Program-made: the position numbers and the translations under genes
The notes under the pieces: generated by a model
What the model was told of the DNA's origin: nothing
Seen by the model: the letters and a program-made list of their open reading frames with translations, nothing else
Databases searched by the model: none
From: Saprospiraceae bacterium
GTDB taxonomy: Bacteria > Bacteroidota > Bacteroidia > Chitinophagales > Saprospiraceae
NCBI GenBank assembly: GCA_027488935.1
Contig: JAIYAP010000011.1
Span: 1 to 64,000 of the forward strand
Direction: 5' to 3'
DNA length: 64,000 nucleotides
In this document: piece after piece, positions 23,393-41,600 of the stretch
Position numbering within the stretch: the first letter of the stretch is position 1
Layout: every line of letters begins with the position of its first letter

Positions 23393-23400
23393 CAAATATA
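23393..23400 (-). promoter_or_regulatory. Putative -7 box of rodA-tgt
   Basis: The minus strand reads TATATTTG, matching TAnnTTTG, 49 bases upstream of the rodA GTG. The -33 box is unclear. Confidence 0.45.
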
Positions 23401-23448
23401 GCCAAAATCGTTAGGATGCTGGTTAAATATTCTTACTGCCGCGCAGTA

Positions 23449-23847: not shown

Positions 23848-23902
23848 GGCGGGTGCTGGTTTGGTTAAACTGGAGCAAGGAAAGCAGGATGTTGCAGGTG
23901 TT

Positions 23903-24556: not shown

Positions 24557-24560
24557 TGGG

Positions 24561-24568
24561 CAAAAATA
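24561..24568 (-). promoter_or_regulatory. -7 box 4 bases before the deoC start
   Basis: The minus strand reads TATTTTTG, then CCCA, then ATG. If used, transcription would begin at or within a few bases of the start codon. No TTG is seen at -33. Confidence 0.45.
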
Positions 24569-24661
24569 ATGGATGAAACGCTTGATTCCATTTAAATAAT
24601 GAATTTTAATCTAAAGTGTCATTAAACAACCATTCTAATGCTGGAATGCAGGCTTTTTACT

Positions 24662-24702
24662 AAAAAAAGCAGGCCTCCTCGCCTGGGTAGAACGAGAAGG
24701 CC
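24662..24702 (-). terminator. Intrinsic terminator downstream of obgE
   Basis: On the minus strand, 24702-24693 pairs with 24681-24672 (10 bp, one G-U) around an 11-base loop. Seven T (24668-24662) follow 3 bases later. It closes either the obgE transcript or a separate small RNA from 24.7 kb. Confidence 0.8.
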
Positions 24703-24714
24703 CTGTGCTTTCAT

Positions 24715-24769
24715 GTGGTTTTCGCCTCAAATGTAAGGGCTCTACTTGAAATGAACCACTTTGTGAGGC
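24715..24769 (-). ncRNA. Possible pseudoknotted RNA element in the obgE 3' region
   Basis: Two interleaved 6-bp complementarities are present: 24715-24720 (GTGGTT) with 24754-24759 (AACCAC), and 24724-24729 (GCCTCA) with 24764-24769 (TGAGGC). Their order A-B-A'-B' is that of an H-type pseudoknot. The element stands between the obgE stop (24822) and the intrinsic terminator at 24662-24702, on the same strand. Six-base matches can arise by chance, and no known RNA family is recognised. Confidence 0.3.
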
Positions 24770-24821
24770 TATAAAAAATCAATTTTTTTATTTAACATGG
24801 TATTTACGCACGCTCAAACGC

Positions 24822-25820
24822 TTATTCGGCATTCAATTGCTTCCAAAGCATGTCTTTTAACTTTTGTATATTGGAATTGGAAACGGCCGAAATAAAGATA
24901 CAGGGCACGCCTTCCGGCAGGGTTTCGCGCAGCATTTGCTCCAGGTCCTGATCGATCAAGTCACATTTAGATACGGCCAAAATGCGGGGTTTATCCAACA
25001 AATCAGGATTGAACTCCCTTAATTCGTTCAATAAAATATGATATTCTTCCGAGATATTGCGAATCGTGTCGGCCGGAACCAAAAACAGCAGGATGCTATT
25101 GCGTTCAATATGCCGCAAAAAGCGATGTCCGAGGCCTTTGCCTTCGTGTGCGCCTTCGATGATACCCGGTATATCGGCCATGATGAACGTTTGGCCTGGC
25201 CTGGATTCAACAATGCCTAGATTGGGTGTCAGGGTGGTAAATGCGTAATCTCCGATTTTGGGTTTGGCAGCCGAAACGGAACTTAAAAGCGTGCTTTTCC
25301 CAGCATTGGGGAAGCCTACGAGCCCTACATCGGCCAAAACTTTAAGTTCGAGGATGATCCATTTTTCAAGGCCGGGTTCGCCTGGTTGTGCATATTTTGG
25401 TGCGCGGTTGGTGGAGGTTTTGAAAAAATCATTGCCTTTACCTCCACGGCCACCGGGCAGCAAAATCTTTTCTTCGCCTGCTTCGGTGATTTCCAACAAA
25501 ATTTCTCCCGTTTCCGCATCTTTTGCGACGGTACCCAAGGGGACATTCACGATAATCGTATCGCCATCGCTGCCCGATTTGAGTCCGCCGCGCCCACCTT
25601 GACCATCCTCGGCAAAAATGTGCTTTTTATAGCGCAAACTCAATAGGGTCCACTCTTGGGGATCTGCCCGAAGGATAATATGCCCACCGTGTCCGCCATC
25701 TCCGCCATCTGGCCCACCCAAGGGCATGGCCGGTCCGCGATAAAAATGCGAACTACCCGCTCCGCCTTTGCCTGATCGGAACATGATTTTTACGTAATCA
25801 ACAAAATTTTGCTCTGCCAT
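24822..25820 (-). CDS. obgE: GTPase Obg
   Basis: A conserved ribosome-associated GTPase needed for 50S maturation. The 332-residue protein has the glycine-rich Obg fold (FRSGKGGAGSSHFYR, GGPDGGDGGHGGHI; residues 1-160) and the G domain with GFPNAGKST (G1), DIPGIIEGAHEGKG (G3) and SKCD (G4). It lacks the extra C-terminal OCT domain. The frame extends 18 residues upstream, but the ATG at 25820 (MAEQNFVDYVKI) matches the family start. Confidence 0.96.
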   Translation of the reverse strand: MAEQNFVDYVKIMFRSGKGGAGSSHFYRGPAMPLGGPDGGDGGHGGHIILRADPQEWTLLSLRYKKHIFAEDGQGGRGGLKSGSDGDTIIVNVPLGTVAKDAETGEILLEITEAGEEKILLPGGRGGKGNDFFKTSTNRAPKYAQPGEPGLEKWIILELKVLADVGLVGFPNAGKSTLLSSVSAAKPKIGDYAFTTLTPNLGIVESRPGQTFIMADIPGIIEGAHEGKGLGHRFLRHIERNSILLFLVPADTIRNISEEYHILLNELREFNPDLLDKPRILAVSKCDLIDQDLEQMLRETLPEGVPCIFISAVSNSNIQKLKDMLWKQLNAE

Positions 25821-25890
25821 GTATGGAACTGCTGTCAGCAACCAGTCTTCAAATTCGAAAACGGTTGAGTACAAATAGGTTAAAACCGGG

Positions 25891-25898
25891 CAAAGGTA
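25891..25898 (-). promoter_or_regulatory. Putative -7 box of obgE
   Basis: The minus strand reads TACCTTTG 70 bases before the obgE ATG. A TTTTG lies 13 bases upstream of it, closer than the usual 19. Confidence 0.45.
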
Positions 25899-25985
25899 GG
25901 TAAAATTATAGCAAAAGCCTTGGTTTTCTTTATTTTATAAAACAAAACTCGATCTTTGACGCCAATAAAAATATAAAATCAAATC

Positions 25986-26738
25986 ATGTTGGAAGATCGC
26001 AGTACAAATGCTCCCTTAATTGAACGAAATGAATCTGAACATGTGTGGTTAGAAGGCCCCAAAAGTCGGGGTTTTGAATTGTGGTTTGCCGTACGGGTCT
26101 TTTTTCAATTCGTAAAAGGCTTTCGTGCTCTGCATTTTAGCGGTCCCTGTGTTACGGTGTTTGGGTCGGCCCGATTCAAAGAAGGTCATCCCTATTACGA
26201 AGCCGCGCGGGAAATCGGTGCCAAGATTGTCACTGAATTGGGCATGACGGTGATGACGGGCGGCGGTCCGGGCATCATGGAAGCGGCCAACCGGGGCGCG
26301 CGTGAGGCGGGCGGACCAACCGTAGGCTGTAACGTGGTACTTCCGCATGAGCAAAAAGCCAACCCTTACCTGGATAAATTTGTGACCATCGATTACTTTT
26401 TTGTGCGTAAAGTATTGTTGGCCAAGTATTCCTATGCGTTTGTGATTCTGCCGGGCGGATTTGGCACCATGGACGAGTTTTTTGAAATGCTGACTCTGAT
26501 TCAGACCAAAAAAGTGATCAATTTTCCGATGGTGGTGATGGGGACCGACTATTACAAGCCGCTGCTCGAATATATGCAATGGATGGTGGCGCAGGGTACC
26601 ATTGCCGCTGCGGATTTGGATTTATTGTTGTTTACCGACGATCCGAACGCGGCCATTGCGCACATTCATAAATATGTAAAATCAAATTATGTGATTAAGC
26701 GTGGCAGGCCCATTTCCTGGTTATTCGAACGGGCTTAA
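25986..26738 (+). CDS. LOG family protein (TIGR00730)
   Basis: A 250-residue Rossmann-fold protein with the LOG signature PGGFGTMDEFFEM and the upstream MTGGGPGIMEAANRGA. Characterised members are nucleoside 5'-monophosphate phosphoribohydrolases, known for releasing cytokinin bases in plants and acting on purine nucleotides in bacteria. The N-terminal 45 residues (with HVWLEGPKSRGFELW) extend beyond the minimal fold. It is divergent from obgE. The exact substrate cannot be told. Confidence 0.9.
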   Translation: MLEDRSTNAPLIERNESEHVWLEGPKSRGFELWFAVRVFFQFVKGFRALHFSGPCVTVFGSARFKEGHPYYEAAREIGAKIVTELGMTVMTGGGPGIMEAANRGAREAGGPTVGCNVVLPHEQKANPYLDKFVTIDYFFVRKVLLAKYSYAFVILPGGFGTMDEFFEMLTLIQTKKVINFPMVVMGTDYYKPLLEYMQWMVAQGTIAAADLDLLLFTDDPNAAIAHIHKYVKSNYVIKRGRPISWLFERA

Positions 26739-26753
26739 CAATATTTTGGGCAT

Positions 26754-26786
26754 AAAAAAACCGGATTGTGTTTCCACAACCCGGTT
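26754..26786 (-). terminator. Intrinsic terminator of the 26849-27325 gene
   Basis: Bases 26775-26786 pair with 26759-26770 (12 bp, one mismatch) around a 4-base loop. The minus strand continues into a T-run (26758-26754). The same hairpin may also stop the convergent LOG gene. Confidence 0.75.
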
Positions 26787-26848
26787 GCATTCAACAAGAA
26801 TTTCCTCTTTTGTCATTAAATCCAAATCACTTCAAATCATTATTCACT

Positions 26849-27325
26849 TTATTTTGAAACGGTCGGGCCGTTTTTTTTCTTTTTTTCGCTGTCTTGTACT
26901 TCTTCTGCCTTTGGTGTTACAACCACCGGTTCTGGCGCTTTGGCCCCTTTCTTCTTGTCCGCTACTGCAGTAGTCACTTGTTTTTTCTTCGCTTTTTGTT
27001 CTTTGGATGATTGCGGAACCGCGGTTTCTCTAGACCATTGATCGAGCCATTGGTACAGGCGTTGTTTGCTTAGGTTTGCCGCCAATTGCTGGAAATGCAA
27101 CATATGTTTTGACTGGCGATAGGCCGTCAATAGTTCCATCATCAGCATTCCGTCTTTTTCTCCGCGCTGAACTGCAGCCTGGTAAGCGGTTTTGGTAGCC
27201 GCTTTATCCAACTTTGCCTGTTTTACACTGTTTTTTGCGTCCAAATAACCTTTATGTAAAGGTGCCAAGATTTCATTCCCCGCCAAGCGCTCATCCAGGA
27301 GCATCCGCTCAAATACTTTTTTCAT
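26849..27325 (-). CDS. Conserved-looking hypothetical protein with a lysine-rich tail
   Basis: A 158-residue soluble protein. The first 100 residues are helical and amphipathic (KVFERMLLDERLAGNEILA; AYRQSKHMLHFQQLAANLSK). The last 45 are low-complexity, rich in Lys, Val and Pro, ending KKKKNGPTVSK. It resembles histone-tail-like or nucleic-acid-binding extensions, but no family is recognised. The ATG at 27325 is chosen; the frame runs 36 residues upstream without family-like sequence. It is flanked by its own terminator. Confidence 0.65.
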   Translation of the reverse strand: MKKVFERMLLDERLAGNEILAPLHKGYLDAKNSVKQAKLDKAATKTAYQAAVQRGEKDGMLMMELLTAYRQSKHMLHFQQLAANLSKQRLYQWLDQWSRETAVPQSSKEQKAKKKQVTTAVADKKKGAKAPEPVVVTPKAEEVQDSEKKKKNGPTVSK

Positions 27326-27545
27326 AGTTTTAAAAATTGAAATTCTAATCACTTCCCCAAATTGGACTGGCAAAAGTACGTAACTTAACACTAACTTAAT
27401 ATTAAATTTACAAAAGAGACGCAAACTTAACATTAGGCGTTAAAAATTGAAATGAAAGAAGGTTTTAAGATTCCCATAAAAAAGCAGACCTTTGCGCCCC
27501 AAAAGCGCTACTTGCAAACAATCAGCGCACCAACCTTCATCGCTC

Positions 27546-28646
27546 ATGGCCAATGCAATTTTACTGCTCGAAGATGGCACCGTTTTTCGCGGAAAATCTG
27601 CCGGAAAAATCGGTGCTACCACTGGTGAAATCTGTTTTAATACCGGAATGACCGGTTACCAGGAAATTTTTACCGATCCCTCTTATTTTGGTCAAGTGCT
27701 GGTCGCAACCAATGTGCATATTGGCAATTACGGTATCAAAAAGGAAGAAGTAGAGAGTGATGGTATTAAAATTGCGGGTTTTGTTTGTCGCAATTTCAAC
27801 ACCAATTACAGCCGAAAATTGGCCGACCAGGCGATTGATGATTATTTTGAGGCAGAAGGACTGGTTGCAATCTCGGATGTGGATACGCGCGCCATTGTGC
27901 AGCATATCCGCGAGCGCGGGGCCATGAACTGCATTATTTCTTCCGAAACAGACGATATCGAGGCGCTTAAATTACAACTTGCGGCTACCCCCAAGATGGC
28001 GGGCCTGGAGTTGTCGAGCCTGGTAACTACCAAAGCACCTTATTTTATTGGCAACCCGGATGCTGCGCGCAAAATTGCGGTGATGGATTTTGGCGTAAAA
28101 AAGAACATTCTCCGAAATTTTGACGCCCGCGATTGTTATTTGCAGGTGTTTCCGGCCCGCACGCCTTATGCGGAAGTAAAAGCCTGGAATGCTGATGGTT
28201 ACTTTCTTTCCAACGGACCGGGCGACCCTGCCTCGATGGAATATGCTGTTACACTGGTGAAAGAGATGCTTGCGGAAGAAAAACCACTGTTTGGCATTTG
28301 CCTCGGACAACAATTATTGGCTTTAGCAGCAGGTTTGCCTACCTATAAATTACACCATGGTCATCGGGGTATCAACCACCCTGTGAAAAACCTGCGCACC
28401 GGCCGTTCGGAAATCACCAGCCAGAACCATGGTTTTGGGGTCGTAGAACAGGCCGTATATGACAACCCAGGTTTGGTAGAGCCAACGCATATCAACTTGA
28501 ATGACAATACTGTAGAAGGTATTCGGTTGAAAGGGAAGCCAGCCTTCAGCGTACAGTACCACCCGGAAGCAAGTCCTGGTCCGCATGACGCCCAGTATCT
28601 GTTCGACGATTTTGTTACGTTGATTGATGCGCAGAAAGTTGGCTAA
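27546..28646 (+). CDS. carA: Carbamoyl-phosphate synthase small subunit
   Basis: The glutaminase subunit that feeds ammonia to CarB for pyrimidine and arginine synthesis. The 366-residue protein has the CPSase small-chain domain (ILLLEDGTVFRGKSAG) and a class I glutamine amidotransferase domain with nucleophile Cys252 (FGICLGQQLLAL) and His339/Glu341 (VQYHPEASPGPHD). The open frame begins with a TTG at 27492; the ATG at 27546 fits the family start. carB is not adjacent. It ends 2 bases from the convergent barrel gene. Confidence 0.96.
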   Translation: MANAILLLEDGTVFRGKSAGKIGATTGEICFNTGMTGYQEIFTDPSYFGQVLVATNVHIGNYGIKKEEVESDGIKIAGFVCRNFNTNYSRKLADQAIDDYFEAEGLVAISDVDTRAIVQHIRERGAMNCIISSETDDIEALKLQLAATPKMAGLELSSLVTTKAPYFIGNPDAARKIAVMDFGVKKNILRNFDARDCYLQVFPARTPYAEVKAWNADGYFLSNGPGDPASMEYAVTLVKEMLAEEKPLFGICLGQQLLALAAGLPTYKLHHGHRGINHPVKNLRTGRSEITSQNHGFGVVEQAVYDNPGLVEPTHINLNDNTVEGIRLKGKPAFSVQYHPEASPGPHDAQYLFDDFVTLIDAQKVG

Positions 28647-28648
28647 TA

Positions 28649-29419
28649 CTACAAAGGACGCCAAGGCTCGTTGATAAAATACGAAGCCGTAATGCCCATA
28701 AAGTAGTACAAATCCCCTTTCTTAGGATTTCCGTTGATGCTGATGCCGTCCAAGTTGTCGTTGAAAACCGGGCGCCAGCCCCCTTCTATGCCAAATGTTA
28801 GGCGTTCGGAATAGTCGAACCTGATGCCCATGCCAATGGGCATCGAGATAAAATACCGGTTTACGATATTGTTTTCTGGCAAAGAAGTTCGGAGGTATTT
28901 GGCACGGTCGCTGGCCAAGCCATAATACTCCGGCTCAGGTTTGCTGTGGGCAGCACCTATACCGATAAAGAAGTAAGGCGACACATAAAAGTTATGGATA
29001 CCGGTAAGGGTAACGTGTTCGAGCGCAAGTGGAATCCATTCGCCTACGACGGCAACTTCATGGATACGGGTATAAAATCGGAATTTTCGGCCATTAAGTG
29101 TCGGTGAATTGACATCATCACCAGAAATGGAGCCAGAATAATATTGCGCCTTTACATGAATTTTTTGTGAAATATGGTAGCGGAAGAACGCCCCAAAGCC
29201 AAGGTCGGTTTGCTTCAACTCGATGTCGCGTTCTGCTACATCGCCCGAATAATTGGTAGCGCCGATCATCAACCCTAATTCCATATAATGTTGATAACGC
29301 TTGTATTGGGCTTTGTAAAAAAACTGCGCGTTGGCAACCAGTGGAAAGAAAAGAATCGGCAGTAGGATTAAAAGGAGCGGTTTTGCGACCGTCGGTGTTT
29401 GCTTAGTGTTTGTCGTCAC
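28649..29419 (-). CDS. Outer-membrane beta-barrel protein (DUF6089-like)
   Basis: A 256-residue protein. The signal peptide ends at VANAQ. A small beta-barrel follows that starts YMELGLMIGATNYSGDVAE and has alternating hydrophobic strands to the end, closing with YFMGITASYFINEPW. This matches what I know of the DUF6089 outer-membrane family of Bacteroidota. The start is GTG at 29417-29419, since no ATG precedes the signal peptide. Role unknown. Confidence 0.8.
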   Translation of the reverse strand: MTTNTKQTPTVAKPLLLILLPILFFPLVANAQFFYKAQYKRYQHYMELGLMIGATNYSGDVAERDIELKQTDLGFGAFFRYHISQKIHVKAQYYSGSISGDDVNSPTLNGRKFRFYTRIHEVAVVGEWIPLALEHVTLTGIHNFYVSPYFFIGIGAAHSKPEPEYYGLASDRAKYLRTSLPENNIVNRYFISMPIGMGIRFDYSERLTFGIEGGWRPVFNDNLDGISINGNPKKGDLYYFMGITASYFINEPWRPL

Positions 29420-29620
29420 GATAAAGATTTTTTTCTGGGCGTGTTAAGACCGCAGAAGGATTAAAAGTGAGTTGCAAAGATTAGGGGATTTGTTGGCACT
29501 TGCACGGTTTTTTTGATAGTAAGACTTTAAATTAACGTAAAGTTTTGATTTGTTTTACCGTTTTTATAGCATTATTGTGTAGTATTTAGCATTTTTTATG
29601 TAAGTTGACATTGTGGTGGG

Positions 29621-29651
29621 TTGACGCACTATCTTAAATCCGGTAGATTTG
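29621..29651 (+). promoter_or_regulatory. Promoter of the 29680 T9SS cargo gene
   Basis: TTG at 29621-29623, a spacer of 20 bases, and the -7 box TAGATTTG at 29644-29651. The leader would be about 22 bases. Confidence 0.65.
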
Positions 29652-29679
29652 CAGACATTCCAAAACAAACGACAAACCT

Positions 29680-32600
29680 ATGAAAAGCGCCCAATTCATT
29701 GTTGGCCTCTTATTTTCACTATGTGTAATTAAGTTAAATGCACAGATTAGTATAGTCGATACCAACCCAATCGTTGAAAATTTTGATGGCATGGGGGCTG
29801 ACACATTTTTGCCTTCAGGTTGGAGGATACATAGAAGCGCTGCGCCAACTTGGTCTGCCGCGAAATCAACTTTATCGTTTCAAGCTAGTTCGGGTAGTCC
29901 AACTACGGGTGGCACCTATAACTGGGGGGCCGATGCTTTTGAGCGTGCTGCAGGTTGTATGACTTCGGGTGGTTTTGCCAGTCCGAACAGTTTATTGGCA
30001 TTTTTCCGAAATACCAACAGCGCCGAGTTGACTAGCCTGACCATTTCTTATAGTGTGGAGCGCTATCGTGTTAATACGGCCGCTGCTTCTATTCAATTCT
30101 TTTATTCTTTAAATGGCAGTACCTGGACGGCCGTAAGCGCTGGTGATGTGGCCGCCGCAAGCTTACCAACGGGAGCAAGTGCATATAGTTTTCCACCTAT
30201 ATTAACGGTCAATGTCGCGGCCTTTAATATAACAAATTTGGGGATCACCCAAAATTCAGATATTTACCTGCGTTGGAACATCAATACAACAGGAGGTAAT
30301 TCACAGGGTTTAGGCATTGATAATGTGAGTGTTACCGCCACTTTTGCCGGGGTCGCTGATATTAACATTCAAAGTCCGGTGGGGGTAAATGCGGCATGCG
30401 GGTCTGCTACGGCGGCTTTTGGCAATGTAGGGGTGGGTAGTACGGGTACGACAACGGTTCGGATTGAAAACTTGGGCACGGCTGACTTGACTTTGACCAA
30501 CCTGCCATTCACCATTACCGGGGCCAACGCCAATCAATTTAGCATTACCACCCAACCGAGTACGCCAATTACAGCGAATGGTTTTTCGGATATGGTGATT
30601 GAATTTATTCCGACCAGCACCGGTGCCAAAACAGCGACCATTTCTATTTCGAGCAATGACGTAAATGAAAGTCCGTGTACCATTACACTCAACGGAACTG
30701 GCATTGCGCAATCCCTTTATTTTCGGTCAAAAAACTCGGGCGACTGGACGGATGTGAACACCTGGGAAACTTCTTTGAATGGCAGCAGCTGGTCGAACGC
30801 AACCGTGACACCGGTTAATTTTGCAAGTGACTTGACTGTAACGATCCAAAGTCCGCACGTCGTCAACCTCTTAGACGACCTGACAGTGGATGAACTGGTA
30901 GTTGCAGCGGGCGCAACGTTGAGTGCCAGCAGCATTACCAAGTTAAATTTTAACAACGGCACCGGGGTCGACTTTGACCTGCAAGGGACTTTTGAAGATA
31001 ATGCCGGCTCGGCCAACACCGCGACGTTTGTTTCCGGGGCAAGATGGCGAATGGGCAGCGCGGCCACCTTTTTAAAAACCAGCGATTCGGGCATCGCGAT
31101 TTACCGGGATAATTACGAGGGCGGCATTTCAACCATTCCGGCGGGTGCCCAATGGATTGTTCGCCTCACAACCAATATTGATTTGGCGGCAGTGGGCATG
31201 TTTTATCCCAATTTATCGCTCGAATGCGTTTCGGGTGCGGTAGATATGGGCATGGCGGGCAGTACCGGCGGTTTTTGTACCATCAAAGGCAATTTGGATG
31301 TTGGGGTCAATGGCGCGGGTACGGTTAGGTTGAACAATGCCAATTTTAATGCGACCGCCTGTCAGGTGTTGGGAAATTTGACCATTGGCGACCGCAGTAA
31401 GATTCGGAATACGAATTCGGGCGGCACTACTTTTGGTACAGGCTTTGATTTGTTTGGCAACTTGGACGCTTCCGGTGATGTTGAATTAAAGTTAGGAACC
31501 GGACTAACAAAAGGGGTACTTGGGTTTAAAGGAAGCGGATCGCAAGATGTAACCGGCGATGGTGTGATTGATGTAAACAACTGGCTGGTAAACAAAACGG
31601 GCGGAACTGTCAACTTTACCGGGTTGAGCTACCCACCCACCGTGTATGAAAATATCAACCTGACCAACCGAAACATCGTACTCAATGATGAAGATTTGAA
31701 GTTGGAGAAAAACTGCACGGTAACCAACGCGTCCAACAACTCTTTTGTGCAGACCAACAGCACCGGCACCGTTTTTCGGGAAACGACCTCCACGCATCCT
31801 TTCCCGATCGGATTTAGTACGTATAACCCAATCACGGTGACCGGATCGGGCGCTTTGGATTTTTTTCATGCGCGGGTAGAAGACGTAGTGTATACGGATG
31901 GCACCAGCGGCGCACCATTTACCACCAACGTGGTAGATCGTACCTGGTTTGTTACCGAAGAAACCGCGGGCGGCAATACCATGAATTTGACCGCAACCTG
32001 GTACAGCAGCGATGAATTGAGTGGGTTTACCCGCAGTGCCTGTTATGTATCCCACCATGATGGCACACAATGGAATCCGACCACTGCGGCAGCCGCAAGC
32101 GGTTCCGGTTCTGGGCCGTTCACGCGCACGCGCACGGGGCAAACGAGTTTTTCGCCTTTTGCCGTGGGCAGCAATGGGGCCTTGCCGGTGGAGTTGATTG
32201 ATTTTACGGCCGTTGCGCGCGATCGGGCGGTTCAATTAGACTGGAAAACGGCGACCGAGCAAGACAATGCATGTTTTGAGGTAGAACGCTCGGTGGATGG
32301 ATTACAATTTGAGGTGTTGGGCAAGGTAGCGGGTGCTGGGAATAGCACCTCCATCCAGCAGTATCAGTTTGTGGATGCGGCGCCGGTTGCGGGGGATAAT
32401 TTTTATCGGTTGCGGCAGGTGGATTTTGATGGGGGGTATCAATATAGCCCCGTTGTGGCAATCGTTTGGACAACGAAAGGGGAATTACAATTATCGCCTG
32501 TGCCGGTAATGGATCGTTTGAAAATAAGTCTTCCCGAACCACAGTTAGAAAATGCGCACTATGTCATTTTTGATTATTCCGGGCAAATAGTGCGCGCGAG

Positions 32601-32721
32601 TACCTTACTGGAGCTACCCACGGCTCTGGAAATTGATGTTTTGTCGCTTCCAAAAGGGATGTATGTATTGCAGCTGCAGGCAGAACGGACCTTGTGGCGG
32701 GGGCGTTTTTTGAAAATGTAG
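29680..32721 (+). CDS. Secreted T9SS cargo protein with a choice-of-anchor D domain
   Basis: A 1013-residue protein. The signal peptide ends at KLNAQ. The N-terminal domain (about residues 25-225, PIVENFDGMGADTFLPSGW) looks jelly-roll-like. An ASPM/choice-of-anchor D domain follows (about 230-345, GTTTVRIENLGTADLTLTN). A long beta-rich region runs to about 830. The last 180 residues are the module LPVELIDFTAVARDRAVQLD plus a T9SS sorting domain (LSPVPVMDRLKI ... GMYVLQLQA). It is the first of three consecutive cargo genes sharing that module. Likely exported and attached to the surface; target unknown. Confidence 0.85.
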   Translation: MKSAQFIVGLLFSLCVIKLNAQISIVDTNPIVENFDGMGADTFLPSGWRIHRSAAPTWSAAKSTLSFQASSGSPTTGGTYNWGADAFERAAGCMTSGGFASPNSLLAFFRNTNSAELTSLTISYSVERYRVNTAAASIQFFYSLNGSTWTAVSAGDVAAASLPTGASAYSFPPILTVNVAAFNITNLGITQNSDIYLRWNINTTGGNSQGLGIDNVSVTATFAGVADINIQSPVGVNAACGSATAAFGNVGVGSTGTTTVRIENLGTADLTLTNLPFTITGANANQFSITTQPSTPITANGFSDMVIEFIPTSTGAKTATISISSNDVNESPCTITLNGTGIAQSLYFRSKNSGDWTDVNTWETSLNGSSWSNATVTPVNFASDLTVTIQSPHVVNLLDDLTVDELVVAAGATLSASSITKLNFNNGTGVDFDLQGTFEDNAGSANTATFVSGARWRMGSAATFLKTSDSGIAIYRDNYEGGISTIPAGAQWIVRLTTNIDLAAVGMFYPNLSLECVSGAVDMGMAGSTGGFCTIKGNLDVGVNGAGTVRLNNANFNATACQVLGNLTIGDRSKIRNTNSGGTTFGTGFDLFGNLDASGDVELKLGTGLTKGVLGFKGSGSQDVTGDGVIDVNNWLVNKTGGTVNFTGLSYPPTVYENINLTNRNIVLNDEDLKLEKNCTVTNASNNSFVQTNSTGTVFRETTSTHPFPIGFSTYNPITVTGSGALDFFHARVEDVVYTDGTSGAPFTTNVVDRTWFVTEETAGGNTMNLTATWYSSDELSGFTRSACYVSHHDGTQWNPTTAAAASGSGSGPFTRTRTGQTSFSPFAVGSNGALPVELIDFTAVARDRAVQLDWKTATEQDNACFEVERSVDGLQFEVLGKVAGAGNSTSIQQYQFVDAAPVAGDNFYRLRQVDFDGGYQYSPVVAIVWTTKGELQLSPVPVMDRLKISLPEPQLENAHYVIFDYSGQIVRASTLLELPTALEIDVLSLPKGMYVLQLQAERTLWRGRFLKM

Positions 32722-32912
32722 TGTTCAACAGGATTTGTGTAAGTTAAACGTTTTCAATTGTTTACAGTGTTTGTGCTGTTTTTGATTACTTAACACAATG
32801 GTAAAGTACAAGGGCGATGTAGCCTATATGGAAGTTATACTTTTGTGAGATTTAACATGCCGATTTATGCAAACGCCAAGCCATTTGGGGGATCGGATCA
32901 CAAGCAAACACT

Positions 32913-34601
32913 ATGAAAAGTAAAACATTACGCAGTGCGTACTTTTTCCTCCTATTCCTTGGATTAAGCCCCTTTTTACAGGCTCAAAACGCTGCTGGTT
33001 CGGGCGATATTATATTTACCTATATCAACTCCGATGGTGACGGTTTTGAATTTATGACGCTCACTCGGCTCGATCTTTCTTCTGTAAAATTTACGGATTG
33101 TGGGTTATGTACGCTCGACAATTATAGAAATACGGAAACTTCAAACATTACCACCAATGCTTCCTCCTGGACAGATGTCCCAGCAGGAACTTTTATTCGG
33201 GTTTCGATGGATGGCTCGGGATCCGGAGATTTAAACTCAAATGACGGAATTTTGGCTTCGGTGGGAAGCCAGGGAAACCTGAATGCAAGAGACGGGGAGT
33301 CAATTATAGGTTACACGGGCACCATGAATGCTGGTCAGTGTACAGGAACGGGTTACAATACTCTTATTTCGGGTATTATGAACAATAATGACTGGAATAC
33401 TGGGGCAACAGGGAGTAATGAGTCCAGGGCACCCGGTTCTTCTACTGATTTTACATCTTCGAACGGAAGTAACAACCAATTTGATTCCTGGCGTTTTAAC
33501 GGAAGTATTGTAGGTGACCCGGGTACCTTAGCCTCTGGAGGAAGTAACGGAATTTTGAACGCCTCGGTATGGACAGCCTCAACGACAGGAAGTGCCTTTA
33601 TGGGTTCGGATTTGAATTTAAAAGATATTAAATTCCATGAATCCAATTATTCAAGTGGCACCATCAATGTTACAGTTTTAAGTACCACAAGCATCAAAAT
33701 AGATGCATCCAGCTTGTCTTTTGGAGGCGCTGATGGTGATTCTCGCTATATAATTGTTATTCGGGCAGGATCGCTTCCCAATGGGCCGGTGGACCGGTAT
33801 ACTTGTTATTTAGGCGTTTCCGGGAACTTTAATACGGCACCCAGTGTCGTGATCAGCGCAACGACTAATTCGACAAACGCTTGTGCCTCAGCAACAGCAG
33901 GTGTTGGGAAGGTGGTTTATTTCAATTATGACCTTCCATCTGCATTAACCATTACCAACCTATCCTCTGCGCAAACTTATAATATTGCAATCTATGCGGT
34001 CAATGGCAATGGTTATACGGCAAATATGAGCACTACGCCAGCCACGCTGGCCAGCGTATCCTTACCTATTGAATTGCTTAGTTTCACGGGAAAAAAAGTG
34101 GGTAAAATGGTCAAGATAAATTGGTCCACTGCTACCGAACGCCAAAATGATTTTTTTGAAGTGGAACGTGCCGAAGATGGGATTCAATTTTCAGCAATTG
34201 GTAAAATTAAAGGCGCTGGCGATTCTCAATCCACCCTGGACTATGAACTCCTGGATGCTGCGCCCAAGCCCGGTACCAACTACTACCGCCTGAAACAAAC
34301 CGACTTCGATGGCCAATACACCTACAGCCCGGTAGTCACCGTACAATTCGACGGGCTCGGTAGTTTTCGTTTGTTCCCGGTACCCGTAAAAGACCAGTTA
34401 CAATTGCAACTCGACGAACCGGATGCCTTTGAAAGCCAATGGACGGTGTACAATGCGTTGGGCCAGTTGGTATTATCGGGCCAAATACCAGAAGATCAAA
34501 GCACGATTGATTTGAATGTAAGTGATCTTACGCCTGGCATGTACCTGTTGCAGCGCACATCCGATCGCGCGCGCAGCAGCCGGATGTTTGTGAAGGAATA
34601 A
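32913..34601 (+). CDS. Secreted T9SS cargo protein
   Basis: A 562-residue protein. The signal peptide ends at PFLQAQ. The N-terminal domain (about residues 25-390) begins AGSGDIIFTYINSDGDGFEF, a pattern resembling lamin-tail or CalX-like beta domains, with spaced Asp/Gly that could bind calcium. The C-terminal module is LPIELLSFTGKKVGKMVKIN followed by the sorting domain (LFPVPVKDQLQL ... GMYLLQRTS). Codon use turns C-rich from about 34,225 to the end, unlike the AT-rich first part. It lies 191 bases after the preceding cargo gene. Confidence 0.83.
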   Translation: MKSKTLRSAYFFLLFLGLSPFLQAQNAAGSGDIIFTYINSDGDGFEFMTLTRLDLSSVKFTDCGLCTLDNYRNTETSNITTNASSWTDVPAGTFIRVSMDGSGSGDLNSNDGILASVGSQGNLNARDGESIIGYTGTMNAGQCTGTGYNTLISGIMNNNDWNTGATGSNESRAPGSSTDFTSSNGSNNQFDSWRFNGSIVGDPGTLASGGSNGILNASVWTASTTGSAFMGSDLNLKDIKFHESNYSSGTINVTVLSTTSIKIDASSLSFGGADGDSRYIIVIRAGSLPNGPVDRYTCYLGVSGNFNTAPSVVISATTNSTNACASATAGVGKVVYFNYDLPSALTITNLSSAQTYNIAIYAVNGNGYTANMSTTPATLASVSLPIELLSFTGKKVGKMVKINWSTATERQNDFFEVERAEDGIQFSAIGKIKGAGDSQSTLDYELLDAAPKPGTNYYRLKQTDFDGQYTYSPVVTVQFDGLGSFRLFPVPVKDQLQLQLDEPDAFESQWTVYNALGQLVLSGQIPEDQSTIDLNVSDLTPGMYLLQRTSDRARSSRMFVKE

Positions 34602-34686
34602 AAGGGTGAGCGATAAGGGGTTTGTGTTAAAACGGGCTTTTATTGCATCTGAAAGTATTCTTAACAATTCGGTAATATTGAGAGGG

Positions 34687-34716
34687 TTGTACCCACATAC
34701 AAGCCTCTTACTTTTG
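34687..34716 (+). promoter_or_regulatory. Promoter far upstream of the 35038 cargo gene
   Basis: TTG at 34687-34689, exactly 19 bases, then the -7 box TACTTTTG at 34709-34716. This is one of the best promoter matches in the window. It implies a 5' leader of roughly 310 bases. Confidence 0.6.
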
Positions 34717-35037
34717 CGGCATTCCTCCGAAAGATTTTACCTCGCTTCATGTGCGCCGCTCTGGCGCTTTAATCGGTATTGGGTTTTGGGGATCATGTGT
34801 TTCGAACAAAACATGTGCACACTCGAATATCCAATTATCTAATTTGGGGTTTACATCCAATCATTTCTAAGTCTTATCACTTCCAAGTTTCGAATTCGGA
34901 ACAGGGGTATGATTGACCTATTGTAATTTAAAGTCTTAACTTTTGGAATAAGGTTTATTCCAAAGTGTATCCAAAATCCATTCAAATTGTAACTTCAGAC
35001 AACATTTTTTAAATGTTGCTAAAAAACATACTTCAAG
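34717..35037 (+). other. Long leader region with two hairpins before the 35038 gene
   Basis: No gene is seen here. Two perfect hairpins stand out: 34942-34951 with 34955-34964 (10 bp, 3-base loop), and 35000-35007 with 35011-35018 (8 bp, 3-base loop), the latter ending 19 bases before the ATG. They could act on translation or as protein sites. Neither has a T-run that would make it a terminator. Confidence 0.45.
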
Positions 35038-37206
35038 ATGAACAAAATGCAATTCAACGGCTTATTGACATTGATTTTATTGTTTCAAATCAGTTTTGTC
35101 ATTGGCCAAACGAACTATTATTACGATGGTTCTGGCAGTGGTACGGTAACTACTAATTGGTGGACTAACACAAACGGTACAGGAAGTAATCCGACCAACT
35201 TTACTGCCGCTAACCAGATTTTTAATGTTCAATCAGGGCAAAATCTTACGTTTTCTACAACTTGGAGCGTTTCAGGATCTGGTTCTAGAGTTGTTGTTCT
35301 CTCTGGCGGAACAATAACATCTACCTCTAATCATACTATGACTCTGGATATGCAAGGAACTGCCAAATATGATCAAACTGGTACGTATACTAGCTTAACT
35401 TTCGGTTCTTTGGCTAGTACAAGTACTTTTCAGCTTCGCACAAGCAATATTAGGAGTTTATCTTACCCAACTCTTGAAATATCTGATAATTCAATAGATA
35501 TTTCCTTTACTCCATTTTCGATAAGTGGAGATTTAATTATATCGAATAACGGCATATTACGATTCACTGGTACAAGCGCAGTCATTACGATCGGTAATAA
35601 TGTTCAGATAAATAGTGGTTGTACTTTTAACTTATCTAATAATTCTACATCTACATACAACGTTAGTGGAACAATTACGAATTCGGGTACGATAGGTATA
35701 ACTGGGACTGGATCTTCAACAATAAATTTTAATGGAAGCAATTCCGTTACTGCCACATGGGGTACACAAACTACAAGTAACTTTAATGTTAATATTGCCA
35801 GCACTAAAACTGTCGCCTTAGGAAGTGCACTTTCAATAGGTTCTGGTAGGACCGTCACGGTAAATGGCCGGTTGGATTGCGGGACAAATAATATAACTGG
35901 GGCAGGAGCCTTCACCCTTACTTCAGGTGGTACCTTAGGTGTAGGCTCAACAAATGGCATTACCTCATCAGGGGCCTCAGGTAATATTCAAGTTACAGGT
36001 ACTCGTACTTTCCCTGGAGGGGGAAATTACGAGTATAATGGAAGCAGCGCTCAAAGTACAGGTACAGGTTTGCCAACTCCTTTATCTGGTACTTTATTTA
36101 TCAACAACAGCAACGGTGTAAGTTTGACAAATGCAACCACAATCAGCGGTACATTAAACTTCCAAAGTGGAACCTTATTGTCAAATAATAATACACTTAC
36201 ATTGTCAGGAACAGTTAGCAATGCATCCAGTTCTAGTTTTGTTTGTACCTGCACAACTAGTGGGCCTGCTACCAGTGGCGGCGTGACCCGCACGGTCACC
36301 ACATCTGGCTTTTTGTTCCCCGTAGGACCGTCAACTTCTTCTTATATGCCAGCCACCATTGCAACTTCAAGTGGCTCGGCCCCCTTCACAGTCCGCGTAT
36401 TAAATCTTGCAAATGCCAATAATGCCAGCGCCGCAGTTCAACGTATGTGGAATATTACGGGTTCTGGTACAGCCAGTCTGACCTTACAGTGGAATGCTTC
36501 CGAAGAAGGCGGCTCATTCGATCCTAGCGGAGCCTTGCGTATCGGTCGTTATACTGGCGGTACTCCTTCATGGGTAGAAGTTTCGGCGAGTTATAATGCA
36601 GGAGGCCCATCTGCTACGGCCTCAATTAGCGCGTGGGGCACAAATTTTGGTGTAGGTACAGCCTCTTCCCTCCCCATCAAACTAATTTCCTTCAACGCCA
36701 CCCGCCAAAACAACCAAGCCCAACTTACCTTCTCCACCGCCACCGAAGAAAACAACAATTTCTTCGCGATCGAGCGCTCCGGCAATGGTACAGACTTCCG
36801 TACCATTGGTAAAGTAAACGGTGCGGGTACCACCACCAGCATCCAAAACTACACCTTCTCGGATGAAACGCCTTTGAGCGGCATCAATTACTACCGCTTG
36901 AAACAAGTGGATTTTGATGGTCAGTTTTCATACAGCCCGGTCGTCAATGTAGTGTTTGACAACAAAGCAGGCATTCGGCTCGCGCCTACGCCCGTGCAGG
37001 ATCAGTTGCGCGTGGAATTGGATGAAATGTTCCAAGAGGACGCCCAATGGCAGTTGTACGATTTCGCGGGCCGCCTGGTTCAAACCGGGGTGTTGTCTGC
37101 TGAAAACACGGTGTTCAATGTGGAAGTGGGAAGCCTTACACCGGGTAATTACGTGATCCGCGTGGTAAGTGGCCAAACTACCTTGACGAAGCAATTCCAG
37201 AAATAA
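35038..37206 (+). CDS. Secreted T9SS cargo protein with a Ser/Thr/Asn-rich beta passenger
   Basis: A 722-residue protein. The signal peptide ends near FVIGQ. Residues 22-540 are low-complexity, rich in Thr, Ser, Gly and Asn, with repeated short beta motifs (SGTVSNASSSS, GTITNSGTIGITGTG), as in beta-helix adhesins. The last 180 residues are the shared module LPIKLISFNATRQNNQAQL plus a sorting domain (LAPTPVQDQLRV ... GNYVIRVVSG). Base composition switches from AT-rich to C-rich at about 36,660, exactly where the module begins. An alternative ATG at 35047 is possible. Probably a surface adhesin or matrix protein. Confidence 0.82.
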   Translation: MNKMQFNGLLTLILLFQISFVIGQTNYYYDGSGSGTVTTNWWTNTNGTGSNPTNFTAANQIFNVQSGQNLTFSTTWSVSGSGSRVVVLSGGTITSTSNHTMTLDMQGTAKYDQTGTYTSLTFGSLASTSTFQLRTSNIRSLSYPTLEISDNSIDISFTPFSISGDLIISNNGILRFTGTSAVITIGNNVQINSGCTFNLSNNSTSTYNVSGTITNSGTIGITGTGSSTINFNGSNSVTATWGTQTTSNFNVNIASTKTVALGSALSIGSGRTVTVNGRLDCGTNNITGAGAFTLTSGGTLGVGSTNGITSSGASGNIQVTGTRTFPGGGNYEYNGSSAQSTGTGLPTPLSGTLFINNSNGVSLTNATTISGTLNFQSGTLLSNNNTLTLSGTVSNASSSSFVCTCTTSGPATSGGVTRTVTTSGFLFPVGPSTSSYMPATIATSSGSAPFTVRVLNLANANNASAAVQRMWNITGSGTASLTLQWNASEEGGSFDPSGALRIGRYTGGTPSWVEVSASYNAGGPSATASISAWGTNFGVGTASSLPIKLISFNATRQNNQAQLTFSTATEENNNFFAIERSGNGTDFRTIGKVNGAGTTTSIQNYTFSDETPLSGINYYRLKQVDFDGQFSYSPVVNVVFDNKAGIRLAPTPVQDQLRVELDEMFQEDAQWQLYDFAGRLVQTGVLSAENTVFNVEVGSLTPGNYVIRVVSGQTTLTKQFQK

Positions 37207-37297: not shown

Positions 37298-37305
37298 GTT
37301 TTTTT

Positions 37306-37438
37306 CTACAAATGCACGACCCCTCCGAGGTCGTAAGGAGGGGATTGTGCGCTGGTTTCTACAAATGCGCGACCTCTCCGAGGTCGGTGGGAGGGTTTTC
37401 GTTTTTGTTTCTACAAATGCACGACCGCTCCGAGGTCG
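37306..37438. repeat. Three tandem copies of a 28-bp palindromic repeat
   Basis: Copies at 37306-37333, 37359-37386 and 37411-37438, each CTACAAATGC(A/G)CGACC followed by an imperfect palindrome of the form CGACC-n-CTCC-GAGGTCG. Spacing is 53 and 52 bases. The same family recurs at 46413-46531. It looks like a REP-type dispersed repeat. The stretch 37439-37680 holds nothing else that I can support. Confidence 0.8.
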
Positions 37439-37680
37439 GTGGGGGGCGTTTTCTTCGATTTTGGGCTTTTCTTATGCTGGTTCAATGTTTATCATTCAAT
37501 GTGGGATGCAAAAAGCCTCCTTGCTAAAATTCAAATAGCATAAAAATCAAATTATCGGCAGTAACTATTGTTTTGTGCCAATATATAGAAGATGAAAAGC
37601 GCGTGTTTTTTTACCTGTCGAAGGATGAGATCTTTTAATTATATTGATAATAAAACTTGTAAATTTGTTTAATATATTGG

Positions 37681-38201: not shown

Positions 38202-38292
38202 ATTGTTGTGTTATTTTATGCAAAAATAAGGGTTTTTGAGTTAGATGCAAGGGGTTTTTGTGATTATGGTATGCCCGCGTAGAGGAGGTTTC

Positions 38293-38384
38293 GCGCAGAT
38301 TTTACGCAGATTTGAAGGCGCAGATTTTACGCGGAAAAATTCTGTGTAACATCTGGTGCTTTTAAATCTACGTAACATCTGCGC
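38293..38384. repeat. Inverted and direct copies of a 21-base repeat
   Basis: GCGCAGATTTTACGC occurs at 38293-38307 and again at 38318-38332. The 21-base arm at 38293-38313 is the reverse complement of 38364-38384 with two mismatches. A further perfect 8-bp hairpin follows at 38396-38403/38415-38422. These are probably dispersed genomic palindromes, not genes. Confidence 0.65.
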
Positions 38385-38456
38385 GAAAAATAGTTGATTG
38401 TGGCGACGCTGTCACCACAATCTCAGCGTCCGAACACATTCTAATAATTCCCATCT

Positions 38457-38679: not shown

Positions 38680-41600
38680 CTATTCAATATTCAAAAAACG
38701 CTGCGTCCATTGCCGCCCGTCGTCGAACCGCACATCTAATACGTGCAGACCGGTTGTCAACGACTCCGGCAAGCGGATGGTGGCAGGATGTTCGGGTTGA
38801 TTGACCCGCTCGGCGTACACCAAACGGCCCTGATTGTCCAATACCCGCAACTGCAAACCGCCCGCTTTCCAGTCGGGCGCTTCCAGGTACAATAAGCCAT
38901 CGGTCGGGTTGGGATATAACAAGATGTTGGGGTCGGATGCGCCGCGCTCGGTTGCAGACGGGCGCGACGATTCATATACCACCGGACAATAGAACGTATT
39001 GAGGTGTGCTGCGTGGTAAATCTGGTCTTTTAAGCGGACCGTCACGTGGATGTAATTCGGATCTGCCTGCGCCGGCAAGGTGTAGGTAAATATCTCCGAC
39101 TGACCGTTGGCAATGCTGTCGGTGGTAGACGAAAACCGCAGGGAATAGAAAGGGGTAAAATTGGGGTTTCGAACCAGATAGTTCCGGCCGGAAGGGGCTG
39201 GGTATACCGCATTATTCAAAGGCGCAACGGCCAGCAAACCATCGGGGAGTTGCGCCGCGAAATAAATCATTTTCTGTGTGCAATTATTGGTCACCCGGAT
39301 CCGATAACGCTGCTGTCCGGCAGGATTTTGGGTAATACCGACCAATTCAAATTTAATACAGTTAATCACTTTTACATCGCAGGACGACTTTTCCTGTACC
39401 ACCACCTTGAAGCAACAGGTAATGTTGGCGCCACAGGAATCTTTTGCCGTGTAACACACATCGGTGCTGCCAAGCGGGAAATTAGCGCCAGATGGAAAAC
39501 CTTGTTGCAGTTTTATCTGAACACCCGGACAAATACAATCCGTTGCTGCGGTTATCTGCGGATAGGTAACCAATGCCTCCTGATCGCCCGGCGGAATATC
39601 GACGTAAAAGTCATTCGGGCACTGGATGATCATGGATGATTCAAAATCCGTTGAACTGTATTGCAGGGTGTAGGTAACCAGCGTGTCGCAGCCCGTCGTA
39701 GCCGGAACGATGCCCGTAATGGTGCCGGGCTGGTTGTATGCTTGGCCTCCAATCGTTACGGATTCTCCCGGACAAAACAGGATGGTTTTGGTAGCAGTCG
39801 GGAGCGGGGCAAAGGCCAGTGTGTAAGTCACGAGGGTGTCGCAACCCGTCAAAGCAGGCACCGTGCCCGTGGCTGAACCGGGTTGGGTGTACGCTTGTCC
39901 GCCGATGAGCACCGTGTCGCCCGGACAGAACAAAATGGTCTGGATACCAGTAGGTTGTGGTGCAAATTCGAGGATATACGTCACCACTGTATCGCACCCA
40001 ACCGCAGCAGGCAGCAGGCTTTGTACCGTACCGGGTTGCGTGTATGTTACGCCATCGATGCTGACGGAAGTGCCCGGACAAAAGGCAAGGTTGCGGGTTA
40101 GGGTCGGCGGATTGATATTCCGAATGATGTAGGTAGCCAAGGTGTCACAGCCTTGCGTGGCTGGGATGGTCAGGGTAAATGTAGTAGCCGCAAAATAGGC
40201 TTGTCCGAAAACAAATACGGTATCTCCGGGGCATAGTCCGATGGTATCCGCGCGTGTCGGGATCGGCGCAAAGCGCAGGGCGTAACTGACAATTGTATCG
40301 CAACCCACCAGCGCCGGAAGGGTATCTTGCACAAATCCAGGCTCTGTATAGGGCAATCCGTTGACAAAAAGGGTGTCACCGGGGCACAGGAACAAGGTTT
40401 TACTTATGGTAGGCAACAATTGTTCCTCCAATATATAGGTGCGCAGGGTGTCGCAAACGCCGGATCCCGGTATGGTAAAGGTAAGCATCGTATCGCCCAC
40501 GGGTATCAGGAATTGCCCTGCCAACAACAGCGTATCGCCAGGACAATACGGCACCAGGATTGTATCGGAAAGTTGGCTTGCCGTGATGGTCAGGGAATCA
40601 ACAGAAATGCAACCGTCTGCTGTTTGGGCAATCACTGTGTAGGTCGTGGTGCCATTGGATCCCACCGTTACGGGGGTGCAATTGGTGCAATTTAAGCCCG
40701 TTGCCGGCGACCAGTTCCAGGACTGAAACCCAATTGGAAGATCGTAACTTATTGTAGTACAGGTGGCAGTGTCTGGTCCGATGTTGAGCACTGTATTGGG
40801 CAAAATAGAAATCAGCACGGTGTCGGATTGTTGTTTTCCGCATTGATCCCATACATCCACCCAGTATTTACCGGGGAAAAGCGTGGTGCGTGTTTGTTCG
40901 GCGCTACCGTCATCCCAGCGGTATTTGGCAAATCCGGCACCGGCATCCAGTACCCGCACTCCATTTTCACACAGGGCAATATCCGGCCCGAGATCAAGCG
41001 TACGCATGCCGCTGGTATCCACGTAAATCAGGAACGTATCGGCTTCTACAATACAAGGCGAAAACACCAGCGCGGTCAGGCGATAGGTTCCGGGCTGGTC
41101 AAAAACGGCCGTTACTAATTTTGGATTTACCACATACAAGCCGCCGCCGTTAAGTTTCCAAATGACAGAATCTACGCTACAGGCTTTGAATTGGAGGGTG
41201 TACTGCAGGGAATCTCCCAGGGTACAAATTGAATCCGGCCCTGCGATTTCCGGGTTGATTTTGCGGGGTAAAAAGTTTTGTGGAAAAGAAGGTAACCCAA
41301 TGTTAGCGGATCCAGGCGACAAAGGCAGGGCGGTTTCCTGATACATACATCCGGTGCCTTTTACATCGGGGGCATTGATCACCCCCAAACTTGGTGAAAA
41401 CTCAAGCGGCGCTGTATTGGGCACATATATTTTCCCGTTTGGTGCGCGTTGCAACTGTCCATACCGGTAAGTAGCGGCGAAAGAAGCAATGGTAACGCCA
41501 TTGCCGATTTGGGCCGGGGGGAGGGTAAGGTCGAATTGGGTAATTCTGGAAGTACCCAGTAAACTGCTTACGTACAATAAGTTACCATCATTGGAAAACT

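What the first reader, a model, noticed from the sequence alone, without database searches (positions are those of the whole stretch)
29680..37206. Three tandem T9SS cargo genes share one C-terminal module but carry unrelated passengers, with a composition switch at the joint
The genes at 29680, 32913 and 35038 all end with the same module of about 180 residues (LPVELIDFTA / LPIELLSFTG / LPIKLISFNA, then YYRLKQ-x-DFDG, then a sorting domain), while the N-terminal parts share nothing obvious. In the third gene the DNA is AT-rich up to about 36,660 and abruptly C-rich from the first residue of the module. In the second the switch falls at about 34,225, inside the module. This suggests that the module is exchanged or converted between genes as a cassette, letting new passengers be captured for T9SS export.
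Basis: partly seen in the sequence, partly recalled or inferred. Interest (0 to 1): 0.62.

Follow-up and report, generated by a model that had tools for sequence, protein, structure and literature searches.

The report
Swappable cargo on bacterial export tags
Three neighbouring genes encode secreted proteins with different front parts on the same kind of export tag, and comparison with related bacteria indicates that the front part can be replaced while the tag stays, a simple way to put new proteins on the cell surface.

Summary
The three modules are real: each gene ends in a 178-179 aa unit, 41-43% identical between genes, modelled as a fibronectin-III-like domain (no Pfam or NCBIfam model of its own) plus a T9SS type A sorting domain. 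The g3 composition switch is real and falls at the module's first codon; g2's lies inside the module. The three modules did not exchange sequence recently: fourfold sites match at chance level. The cassette idea nevertheless holds in relatives. In a sister species (93% DNA identity) g3's place after g2 holds a different cargo gene. That passenger's relative in a third species ends in the module most like g3's (66%; support 100/96). So at g3 the passenger changed and the module stayed. In three other relatives, tandem genes share module DNA (86.6-94.4%) while passengers are unrelated, barely related or saturated; in one, the shared 552 bp run exactly from the module's first base to the stop codon. 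Module replacement at g1 is suggested, not shown. Best reading: export-tag genes that recombine at the joint, a new variant of known modular shuffling; recombination route, direction and T9SS export are inferred.

The parts
29680..32181 (+). g1 passenger (834 aa): Ig-like choice-of-anchor-D domain about 235-340; region 533-795 related to the g3 passenger
   Evidence: 68% identical over residues 240-834 to contig C430 of G004
32182..32718 (+). g1 module (179 aa): FN3-like domain + type A sorting domain
   Evidence: 52% (N-half) and 21% (tail) identical to the module of its G004 passenger ortholog
32913..34061 (+). g2 passenger (383 aa), no significant match to g1 and g3 passengers; no NCBIfam family, only a sub-threshold Pfam fn3 hit
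34062..34598 (+). g2 module (179 aa); GC3 switch about 170 nt inside it
34602..34802 (.). g2-g3 spacer, left part, conserved with sister species G023; homology ends at about 34802
   Evidence: with the end of g2 (34445-34802) 90% identical to G023 contig C104, which then carries a different cargo gene
34803..36669 (+). AT-rich segment read as replaced: rest of spacer plus the g3 passenger (35038-36669, 544 aa)
   Evidence: no DNA match in the 8 genus genomes searched, G023 and G004 among them; passenger GC3 0.31, z -12.4; a different passenger at this place in G023
36670..37203 (+). g3 module (178 aa); modelled as FN3-like sandwich (about residues 1-97) + T9SS type A sorting domain (about 102-177)
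   Evidence: 66% identical to the module of G004 C474, sister support 100/96; AlphaFold2 mean pLDDT 94.9; FN3 match of residues 1-97

Best explanation
This is a small tandem array of T9SS cargo genes. Each gene is built from a signal peptide, an exchangeable passenger and a roughly 540-bp C-terminal export cassette: an FN3-like domain fused to a type A sorting domain. Recombination at or just inside the joint (the LPxxLxxF motif) and in the upstream leader or spacer swaps passengers against the resident cassette, and in some relatives copies the cassette between neighbouring genes. At g3 the passenger was replaced after the split from the sister species, while the cassette was kept. Proposed mechanics: Sec exports the preprotein; the sorting domain is recognised by the T9SS translocon and PorV shuttle; the FN3-like domain gives the sorting domain a matching neighbour, so that a new passenger can be joined in front without rebuilding that contact. 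Shown: homology, joints, species difference, DNA-level cassette sharing in relatives, predicted fold. Inferred: the direction of change at g3 (G004, the more distant genome, shares the sister's passenger), RecA-type recombination, T9SS export and the docking role.
For: g3 place: G023 contig C104 continues g2's tail and spacer (357 bp, 90%) into another cargo gene. That passenger's end is 88.5% identical over 148 aa to the passenger of G004 C474, whose module is 64%/68% (N-half/tail) identical to g3's, against 47-56%/16-36% for the other 14 module pairs compared, C373's tail being truncated; g3 + C474 support 100/96. g3 and C474 passengers have no BLASTP match at E 1e-3. DNA identity of g3 and C474 per 30 nt goes 0.13 (-60), 0.43 (-30), 0.73 at the module's first base, 0.37 (+30), 0.73, 0.80. 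The G023 gene (query of 1167 aa) is matched in 2 of 42 genus genomes at E 1e-20 (itself and G004), not in G000. Relatives: G006 552-bp ungapped block 86.6%, edges +0/+0; G003 92.5% over 506 bp from +42 nt; G043 modules 86% identical at 4-fold sites against 30% for the homologous passengers; L137 (Flavobacteriales) 82.6% over 511 bp from +42 nt. Same-array modules median 51% identical (66 pairs) against 33% (854 pairs elsewhere in the same genomes). Module-to-C-terminus distance is 173-188 aa from the 5th to the 95th percentile of 175 ORFs (range 53-193, duplicates not yet removed). Of 175 genes measured, 15 have a module GC3 at least 0.2 above the passenger and 1 at least 0.2 below.
Against: The three window modules are saturated relative to each other, so no exchange among them is visible. 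G004 C474 has the same AT-rich-passenger/GC-rich-module pattern, so the switch does not date the swap. The G023 gene is cut by its contig end before the module, so its module was not seen, and C474 starts inside its gene, so its own neighbours are unknown. The g3 passenger's C-terminal part is itself related to g1's, so it need not have come from outside the array. In nine cross-genome pairs of G002/G010/G018 the passengers (70-79%) are more alike than the modules (52-70%) without any swap being evident. Between G007 and G008, three of four array orthologs show equal divergence of passenger and module. Most cases rest on contigs of draft genomes.
Confidence: 0.65

Rival explanations
1. Differential loss. 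The ancestral array held both the g3 gene and the G023/G004-type gene, with modules already homogenised; each lineage kept one.
For: An array of 5 module genes exists in G053, and modules of neighbours are more alike than elsewhere. The g3 passenger's C-terminal part is related to g1's, and whole-protein searches give long alignments at 28-35% that run from the module into the passenger, for example G004 C430 and G013 C480.
Against: No DNA match to the g3 passenger in 8 genus genomes and no protein match of g3 in G023 at E 1e-20. With the passenger alone as query, 19 of 396 order genomes match at E 1e-15, its own included; of the 12 same-genus genomes listed only G000 and G008 match. The scenario still needs module sharing between genes with unrelated passengers.
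Confidence: 0.25
2. Ordinary old modularity. Sorting modules were joined to different passengers long ago and have only diverged since; the composition switch reflects codon usage of Ser/Thr/Gly-rich beta-solenoid passengers.
For: Modules in the window are only 41-43% identical, with saturated 4-fold sites. AT-rich passengers recur in C474 and in the gene after C430 (GC3 0.35 and 0.26). The module is found in 38 of 40 genomes searched, its own included.
Against: The g3 deficit stays at z -12.4 after amino-acid correction, 41 other cargo genes show no comparable step, and the G023 comparison shows a different gene at this place since a 93%-identity split.
Confidence: 0.2
3. Module replacement at g1: the passenger is orthologous to G004 C430 (68%) but the module was swapped in one lineage, about 30 nt inside the module.
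For: Protein identity 30/30 at residues 810-839, then 0.53, 0.47, 0.50, 0.23, 0.17, 0.21 per 30 residues; the module pair is no closer than unrelated pairs.
Against: The DNA step is not clean: 0.90 in the first 30 nt of the module, then 0.43, 0.73, 0.60, 0.57, with the steep fall only beyond +330 nt (ungapped). An AU test does not reject g1 and C430 modules as sisters (p 0.53); modules of orthologs can diverge faster than passengers.
Confidence: 0.42

Closest known systems
T9SS type A C-terminal sorting domain (PF18962 / TIGR04183)
   Same: The last about 75 aa of each module are a member of this family; CTDs are known to act as portable export signals: swapped CTDs dictate localisation in F. 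johnsoniae (PMC12618676, passages read).
   Different: The exchange unit here is larger: an FN3-like domain of about 97 aa plus the CTD, nearly always at the same distance from the C-terminus. No Pfam or NCBIfam family that could be the FN3-like part recurs widely in the 87 members scanned (match positions are shown for the first member only).
Domain preceding the CTD in P. gingivalis cargo (RgpB)
   Same: A folded domain directly before the CTD; a point mutant disrupting CTD contact with its preceding domain prevented RgpB secretion (PMC11285876, abstract and passages).
   Different: No sequence match to it was seen: PDB matches of the module profile at E 0.01 or better all lie within profile positions 93-184. 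Analogy of role is inferred.
Domain rearrangement among P. gingivalis surface proteins (Kgp, RgpA, HagA; PMC5266723, passages read)
   Same: T9SS-exported surface proteins diversified by recombination between shared modules.
   Different: There, by the passages read, adhesin domains vary inside related proteins; here whole passengers without similarity sit on a shared C-terminal cassette, in tandem arrays.
Polymorphic toxins (PMC3482391, start of abstract in the listing; PMC7073777, passages)
   Same: A conserved trafficking part combined with a variable part, by recombination with cassettes (PMC3482391).
   Different: Polarity reversed (conserved C-terminus, variable front; the polarity of the toxins is recalled for the general case), and no toxin family was recognised here.

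Membership tests
T9SS type A cargo (TIGR04183 / PF18962) | C-terminal sorting-domain HMM above curated cut-off | tested here: met
   g1 31.7, g2 49.9, g3 30.6 bits against 27 (Pfam); 27.4, 42.2, 30.5 against 23 (TIGR04183)
T9SS type A cargo (TIGR04183 / PF18962) | Seven-stranded CTD homologous to solved CTDs | tested here: met
   Seven strands in 102-177 of the g3 model, pLDDT 94.9; module profile matches solved chains named Por secretion sorting domain in its tail region (8glj_D, E 2e-6). Sheet topology not checked
T9SS type A cargo (TIGR04183 / PF18962) | N-terminal Sec signal peptide | not tested
   Hydrophobic N-termini ending in ...AQ / ...GQ are visible in the translations; no predictor was run
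T9SS type A cargo (TIGR04183 / PF18962) | T9SS machinery in the same genome and T9SS-dependent export | not tested
   150 sorting tails listed, the number scored of 378 candidates; GldK/L/M/N and SprA were not searched; export needs the bench
Fibronectin type III domain (N-half of module) | FN3 beta-sandwich fold | tested here: met
   Model residues 1-97 on Ihog FNIII, Z 10.5, rmsd 2.5 over 96 residues
Fibronectin type III domain (N-half of module) | Sequence match to a curated fn3 model | tested here: not met
   No FN3 family among the 14 Pfam and 12 NCBIfam families matched by any of 87 modules at E 0.01
Gene-conversion cassette | DNA-level module identity far above that of passengers within one genome | tested here: met
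   Met in G006, G003, G043
Gene-conversion cassette | The same among the three window genes | tested here: not met
   4-fold sites at chance level; no long DNA match
Polymorphic toxin system | Toxin domain with neighbouring immunity gene | tested here: inconclusive
   No toxin family in Pfam or NCBIfam for the three window proteins or the g2 and g3 passengers alone; immunity genes not sought
P. gingivalis cleaved-adhesin (CAD/DUF2436) proteins | CAD or DUF2436 domains | tested here: not met
   Absent from the Pfam tables of the three proteins at E 0.1

The most novel reading that the evidence does not exclude
The arrays are standing export sites with conserved ends (5' leader and 540-bp FN3-CTD cassette) and a replaceable middle, through which these bacteria repeatedly load new, often AT-rich passengers onto the T9SS. 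The two-domain cassette, not the CTD alone, is the unit of exchange because the CTD must keep its own docking domain.
Probability: 0.3. Interest if true: 0.72.

Novelty: new variant of a known kind. Interest (0 to 1): 0.52.

Why it matters
T9SS cargo are numerous (at least 150 sorting tails in this genome), yet I found no paper showing how new proteins become cargo (searches named under Tried and rejected). Here there is a fixed place where the passenger differs between species at 93% DNA identity, and relatives where the exchanged DNA block ends exactly at the module. That turns cargo acquisition into something testable in closed genomes. It also points to an apparently uncatalogued FN3-like domain found in 38 of 40 genomes searched, the window's own included, and in 318 confirmed stretches of a species-representative genome collection, which helps annotation and gives a natural fusion tag longer than the usual CTD.

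Tried and rejected
Rfam and tRNA scans of the window found nothing. Recent conversion among the three window modules was rejected by the own-genome DNA search and 4-fold sites. Amino-acid composition as the sole cause of the g3 switch was rejected after amino-acid correction and 41 control genes (a first version of the control, measured only 19 loci because minus-strand loci were read on the wrong strand). Module replacement at g1 was tested with a tree and not established (AU p 0.53). A close donor for the g3 passenger was sought in 396 order genomes: best 43% over residues 182-496, in another genus of the family. In PDB sequences the module profile's matches at E 0.01 or better lie within positions 93-184; weaker hits elsewhere (such as an antibody chain, E 0.043) were set aside. 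Foldseek and its second look mostly list FN3 pairs of animal proteins: a common fold, no clue to function. The p-value counts non-independent pairs and is not used. G021 and G053 arrays were first thought to show conserved ends with a variable middle; most of their passengers proved related over much of their length, so only one G053 gene (passenger without hit to its four neighbours, modules 54-58% identical) fits the cassette picture. Literature: eight searches, each showing at most its 20 best papers, listed no paper that by title and abstract start describes this two-domain cassette or passenger swapping on it; most subscription journals and all bioRxiv preprints are outside that library.
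Full report
WHAT IS THERE. Three same-strand ORFs (29680-32721, 32913-34601, 35038-37206) end in homologous modules of 178-179 residues starting at 32182, 34062 and 36670. Pairwise protein identity is 41-43%. In them Pfam and NCBIfam recognise, above cut-off, only the last 75 residues or so, as the T9SS type A sorting domain. No family for the first 97 residues stands out: of 87 modules scanned, 84 hit PF18962 and 84 hit TIGR04183, while the other families have few members (at most 9 in Pfam) or are themselves T9SS models. AlphaFold2 with 87 aligned modules models the g3 module at mean pLDDT 94.9 as two strand-only halves (pTM 0.66, so their mutual orientation is less sure). Residues 1-97 match fibronectin-III domains (Ihog 2ibg, Z 10.5, rmsd 2.5 over 96 residues).

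COMPOSITION. After correcting GC3 for amino acids with the window's other genes, g3 has the strongest changepoint of the 23 genes tested (9.51 against at most 3.59 outside the three), at informative codon 529 where the passenger holds 530; the passenger is at GC3 0.31 (z -12.4), the module at 0.63. g2's changepoint is inside its module; g1's is in its passenger near residue 214-220, not at the joint. Of 48 other T9SS loci from this genome, 41 could be measured (5 duplicates and 2 short ones dropped); none has a step like g3's.

PASSENGERS. g1 and g3 passengers are related near their C-terminal ends (E 7e-8). g2's shows no significant match to either. So the statement that they share nothing is only partly true.

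NO RECENT EXCHANGE AMONG THE THREE. The g3 module DNA finds 68 bp at 76% in g2 and otherwise only matches of 18-24 bp in the genome. The FN3-like half occurs in full only in these three genes, with one weak partial match elsewhere, although 150 sorting tails were listed for the genome, all that were scored of 378 candidates. 4-fold sites of module pairs agree at 0.19-0.34, chance being 0.27-0.29.

THE PLACE OF g3 IN RELATIVES. G023 is a sister genome at 93% DNA identity over 23237-29875; its contig ends inside g1. Another of its contigs (C104, L257) starts in g2's tail, follows the window at 90% to 34802, and then carries a different cargo gene, open for 1167 codons to the contig's end. The end of that passenger is 88.5% identical over 148 residues to the passenger of G004 contig C474. 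C474 ends in a module 66% identical to g3's, and the two modules are sisters (100/96). Passengers of g3 and C474 have no match at E 1e-3. Between them DNA identity per 30 nt is 0.13 and 0.43 before the joint, then 0.73, 0.37, 0.73, 0.80. The G023 gene is not matched in G000 or in 39 other genus genomes at E 1e-20. Reading: one place, one module lineage, two unrelated passengers; since G004, the more distant genome, shares the sister's passenger, the window's is the likelier newcomer. Gaps: the module of the G023 gene lies beyond its contig end and was not seen, and C474 starts inside its gene, so its own left neighbour is unknown.

THE PLACE OF g1. G004 contig C430 carries a g1 passenger ortholog (67.9% over 595 residues), but the modules agree at only 52% and 21%. 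Protein identity is complete at residues 810-839 and about half thereafter; in DNA the fall after the first 30 nt is uneven (0.43, then 0.73, 0.60, 0.57). This suggests replacement, but an AU test does not reject sister modules (p 0.53), and in nine cross-genome pairs of G002/G010/G018 modules (52-70%) are less alike than passengers (70-79%). G004 contig C373 has, next to the orthologous outer-membrane gene, yet another cargo passenger where the window has g1; its other side matches a distant part of the window, so this synteny is one-sided. The gene after C430 and the G023 gene share a 45-residue leader region (64%, partly upstream of the likely start) but then differ.

CASSETTES AT DNA LEVEL IN RELATIVES. 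From 180 genus and order module genes, 21 pairs have module DNA identity of at least 72% over at least 300 bp, 9 of them within one genome; most of the 21 also have related passengers. The telling ones: G006 C220, a 552-bp ungapped block, 86.6%, from the module's first base to the last base of the stop codon in both genes, with passengers matching only over 113 residues (31%); the two genes also share 86 bp (77%) around the start codon. G003 C190: 92.5% over 506 bp from +42 nt to +2 past the stop, passengers without a hit. G043 C234: modules 86% identical at 4-fold sites, homologous passengers 30%. A Flavobacteriales locus (L137) shows 82.6% over 511 bp from +42 nt, passengers without a hit. 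Between species, G006 and G046 share a module (74.9% DNA from +64 nt) with passengers without a hit. As a baseline, three of four G007/G008 array orthologs have equal passenger and module identity (97/97, 95/94, 93/92); in the fourth the module is 94% and the passenger 71%.

HOW IT LIKELY WORKS. The FN3-like domain and the sorting domain travel together: the distance from module start to C-terminus is 173-188 residues from the 5th to the 95th percentile of 175 ORFs. In P. gingivalis, breaking the contact between the CTD and its preceding domain stopped secretion (PMC11285876, abstract and passages), and CTD swaps redirect cargo in F. johnsoniae (PMC12618676, passages). I infer that a cassette with its own docking domain tolerates many passengers in front. 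Shared module DNA in arrays gives homologous recombination a right-hand anchor. The left-hand crossover at g3 lies in the spacer (about 34802). Neither the recombination route nor export was tested.

TAXONOMY. Two genus contigs have the same lengths as named Saprospiraceae records: G008 C4 and L126 at 660,884 bases, G019 C332 and L078 at 48,195; a third, G003 C190, equals a record titled Chitinophagales (L103, 7,468). The window is therefore probably from Saprospiraceae or its surroundings (inference). The module also occurs in records titled Cytophagales, Flavobacteriales, Bacteroidales and, once, Ignavibacteriales.

VERDICT. New variant of known modular shuffling.

Noticed in passing
window 37299-37453: Three 52-bp tandem repeats with a CCGAGGTCG palindrome just downstream of g3; many dispersed matches in G023 and one in G004.
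   Followed up: partly
window 38289-38391: Imperfect inverted repeat matching many places on both strands in G023, and places in G052, G056, G044, G020 and G012: a dispersed palindromic, REP- or MITE-like family (label recalled).
   Followed up: no
L245 1810-2840: In sister G023 about 1 kb with ATPase-like reading frames (named by eye, no search) lies between the M43 gene end and the palindromic repeat, where the window has no gap.
   Followed up: no
window 38680-45300, minus strand: 2206-aa pappalysin-like M43 metallopeptidase with PKD and HYR domains and a sub-threshold sorting tail.
   Followed up: no
window 46561-46724: 3.3 copies of a 49-bp tandem repeat, 92% matches.
   Followed up: no
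L193, L194, L195, L257: G004 and G023 carry further cargo at this array, including passenger-associated-transport-repeat (PATR) proteins in G004 and a shared 45-residue leader region on different passengers.
   Followed up: partly
L177 and L178 (G007 and G008 arrays): Of four orthologous cargo pairs one has a passenger at 71% while its module is at 94%; the dip lies mainly in residues 41-200.
   Followed up: partly
genus genomes: Among the genomes, module matches range from 0 to 31 within the genus and reach 40 in one order-level relative.
   Followed up: no
window about 30320-30340 (g1 residue 214-220): g1 has its own GC3 changepoint shortly before its choice-of-anchor-D domain.
   Followed up: no
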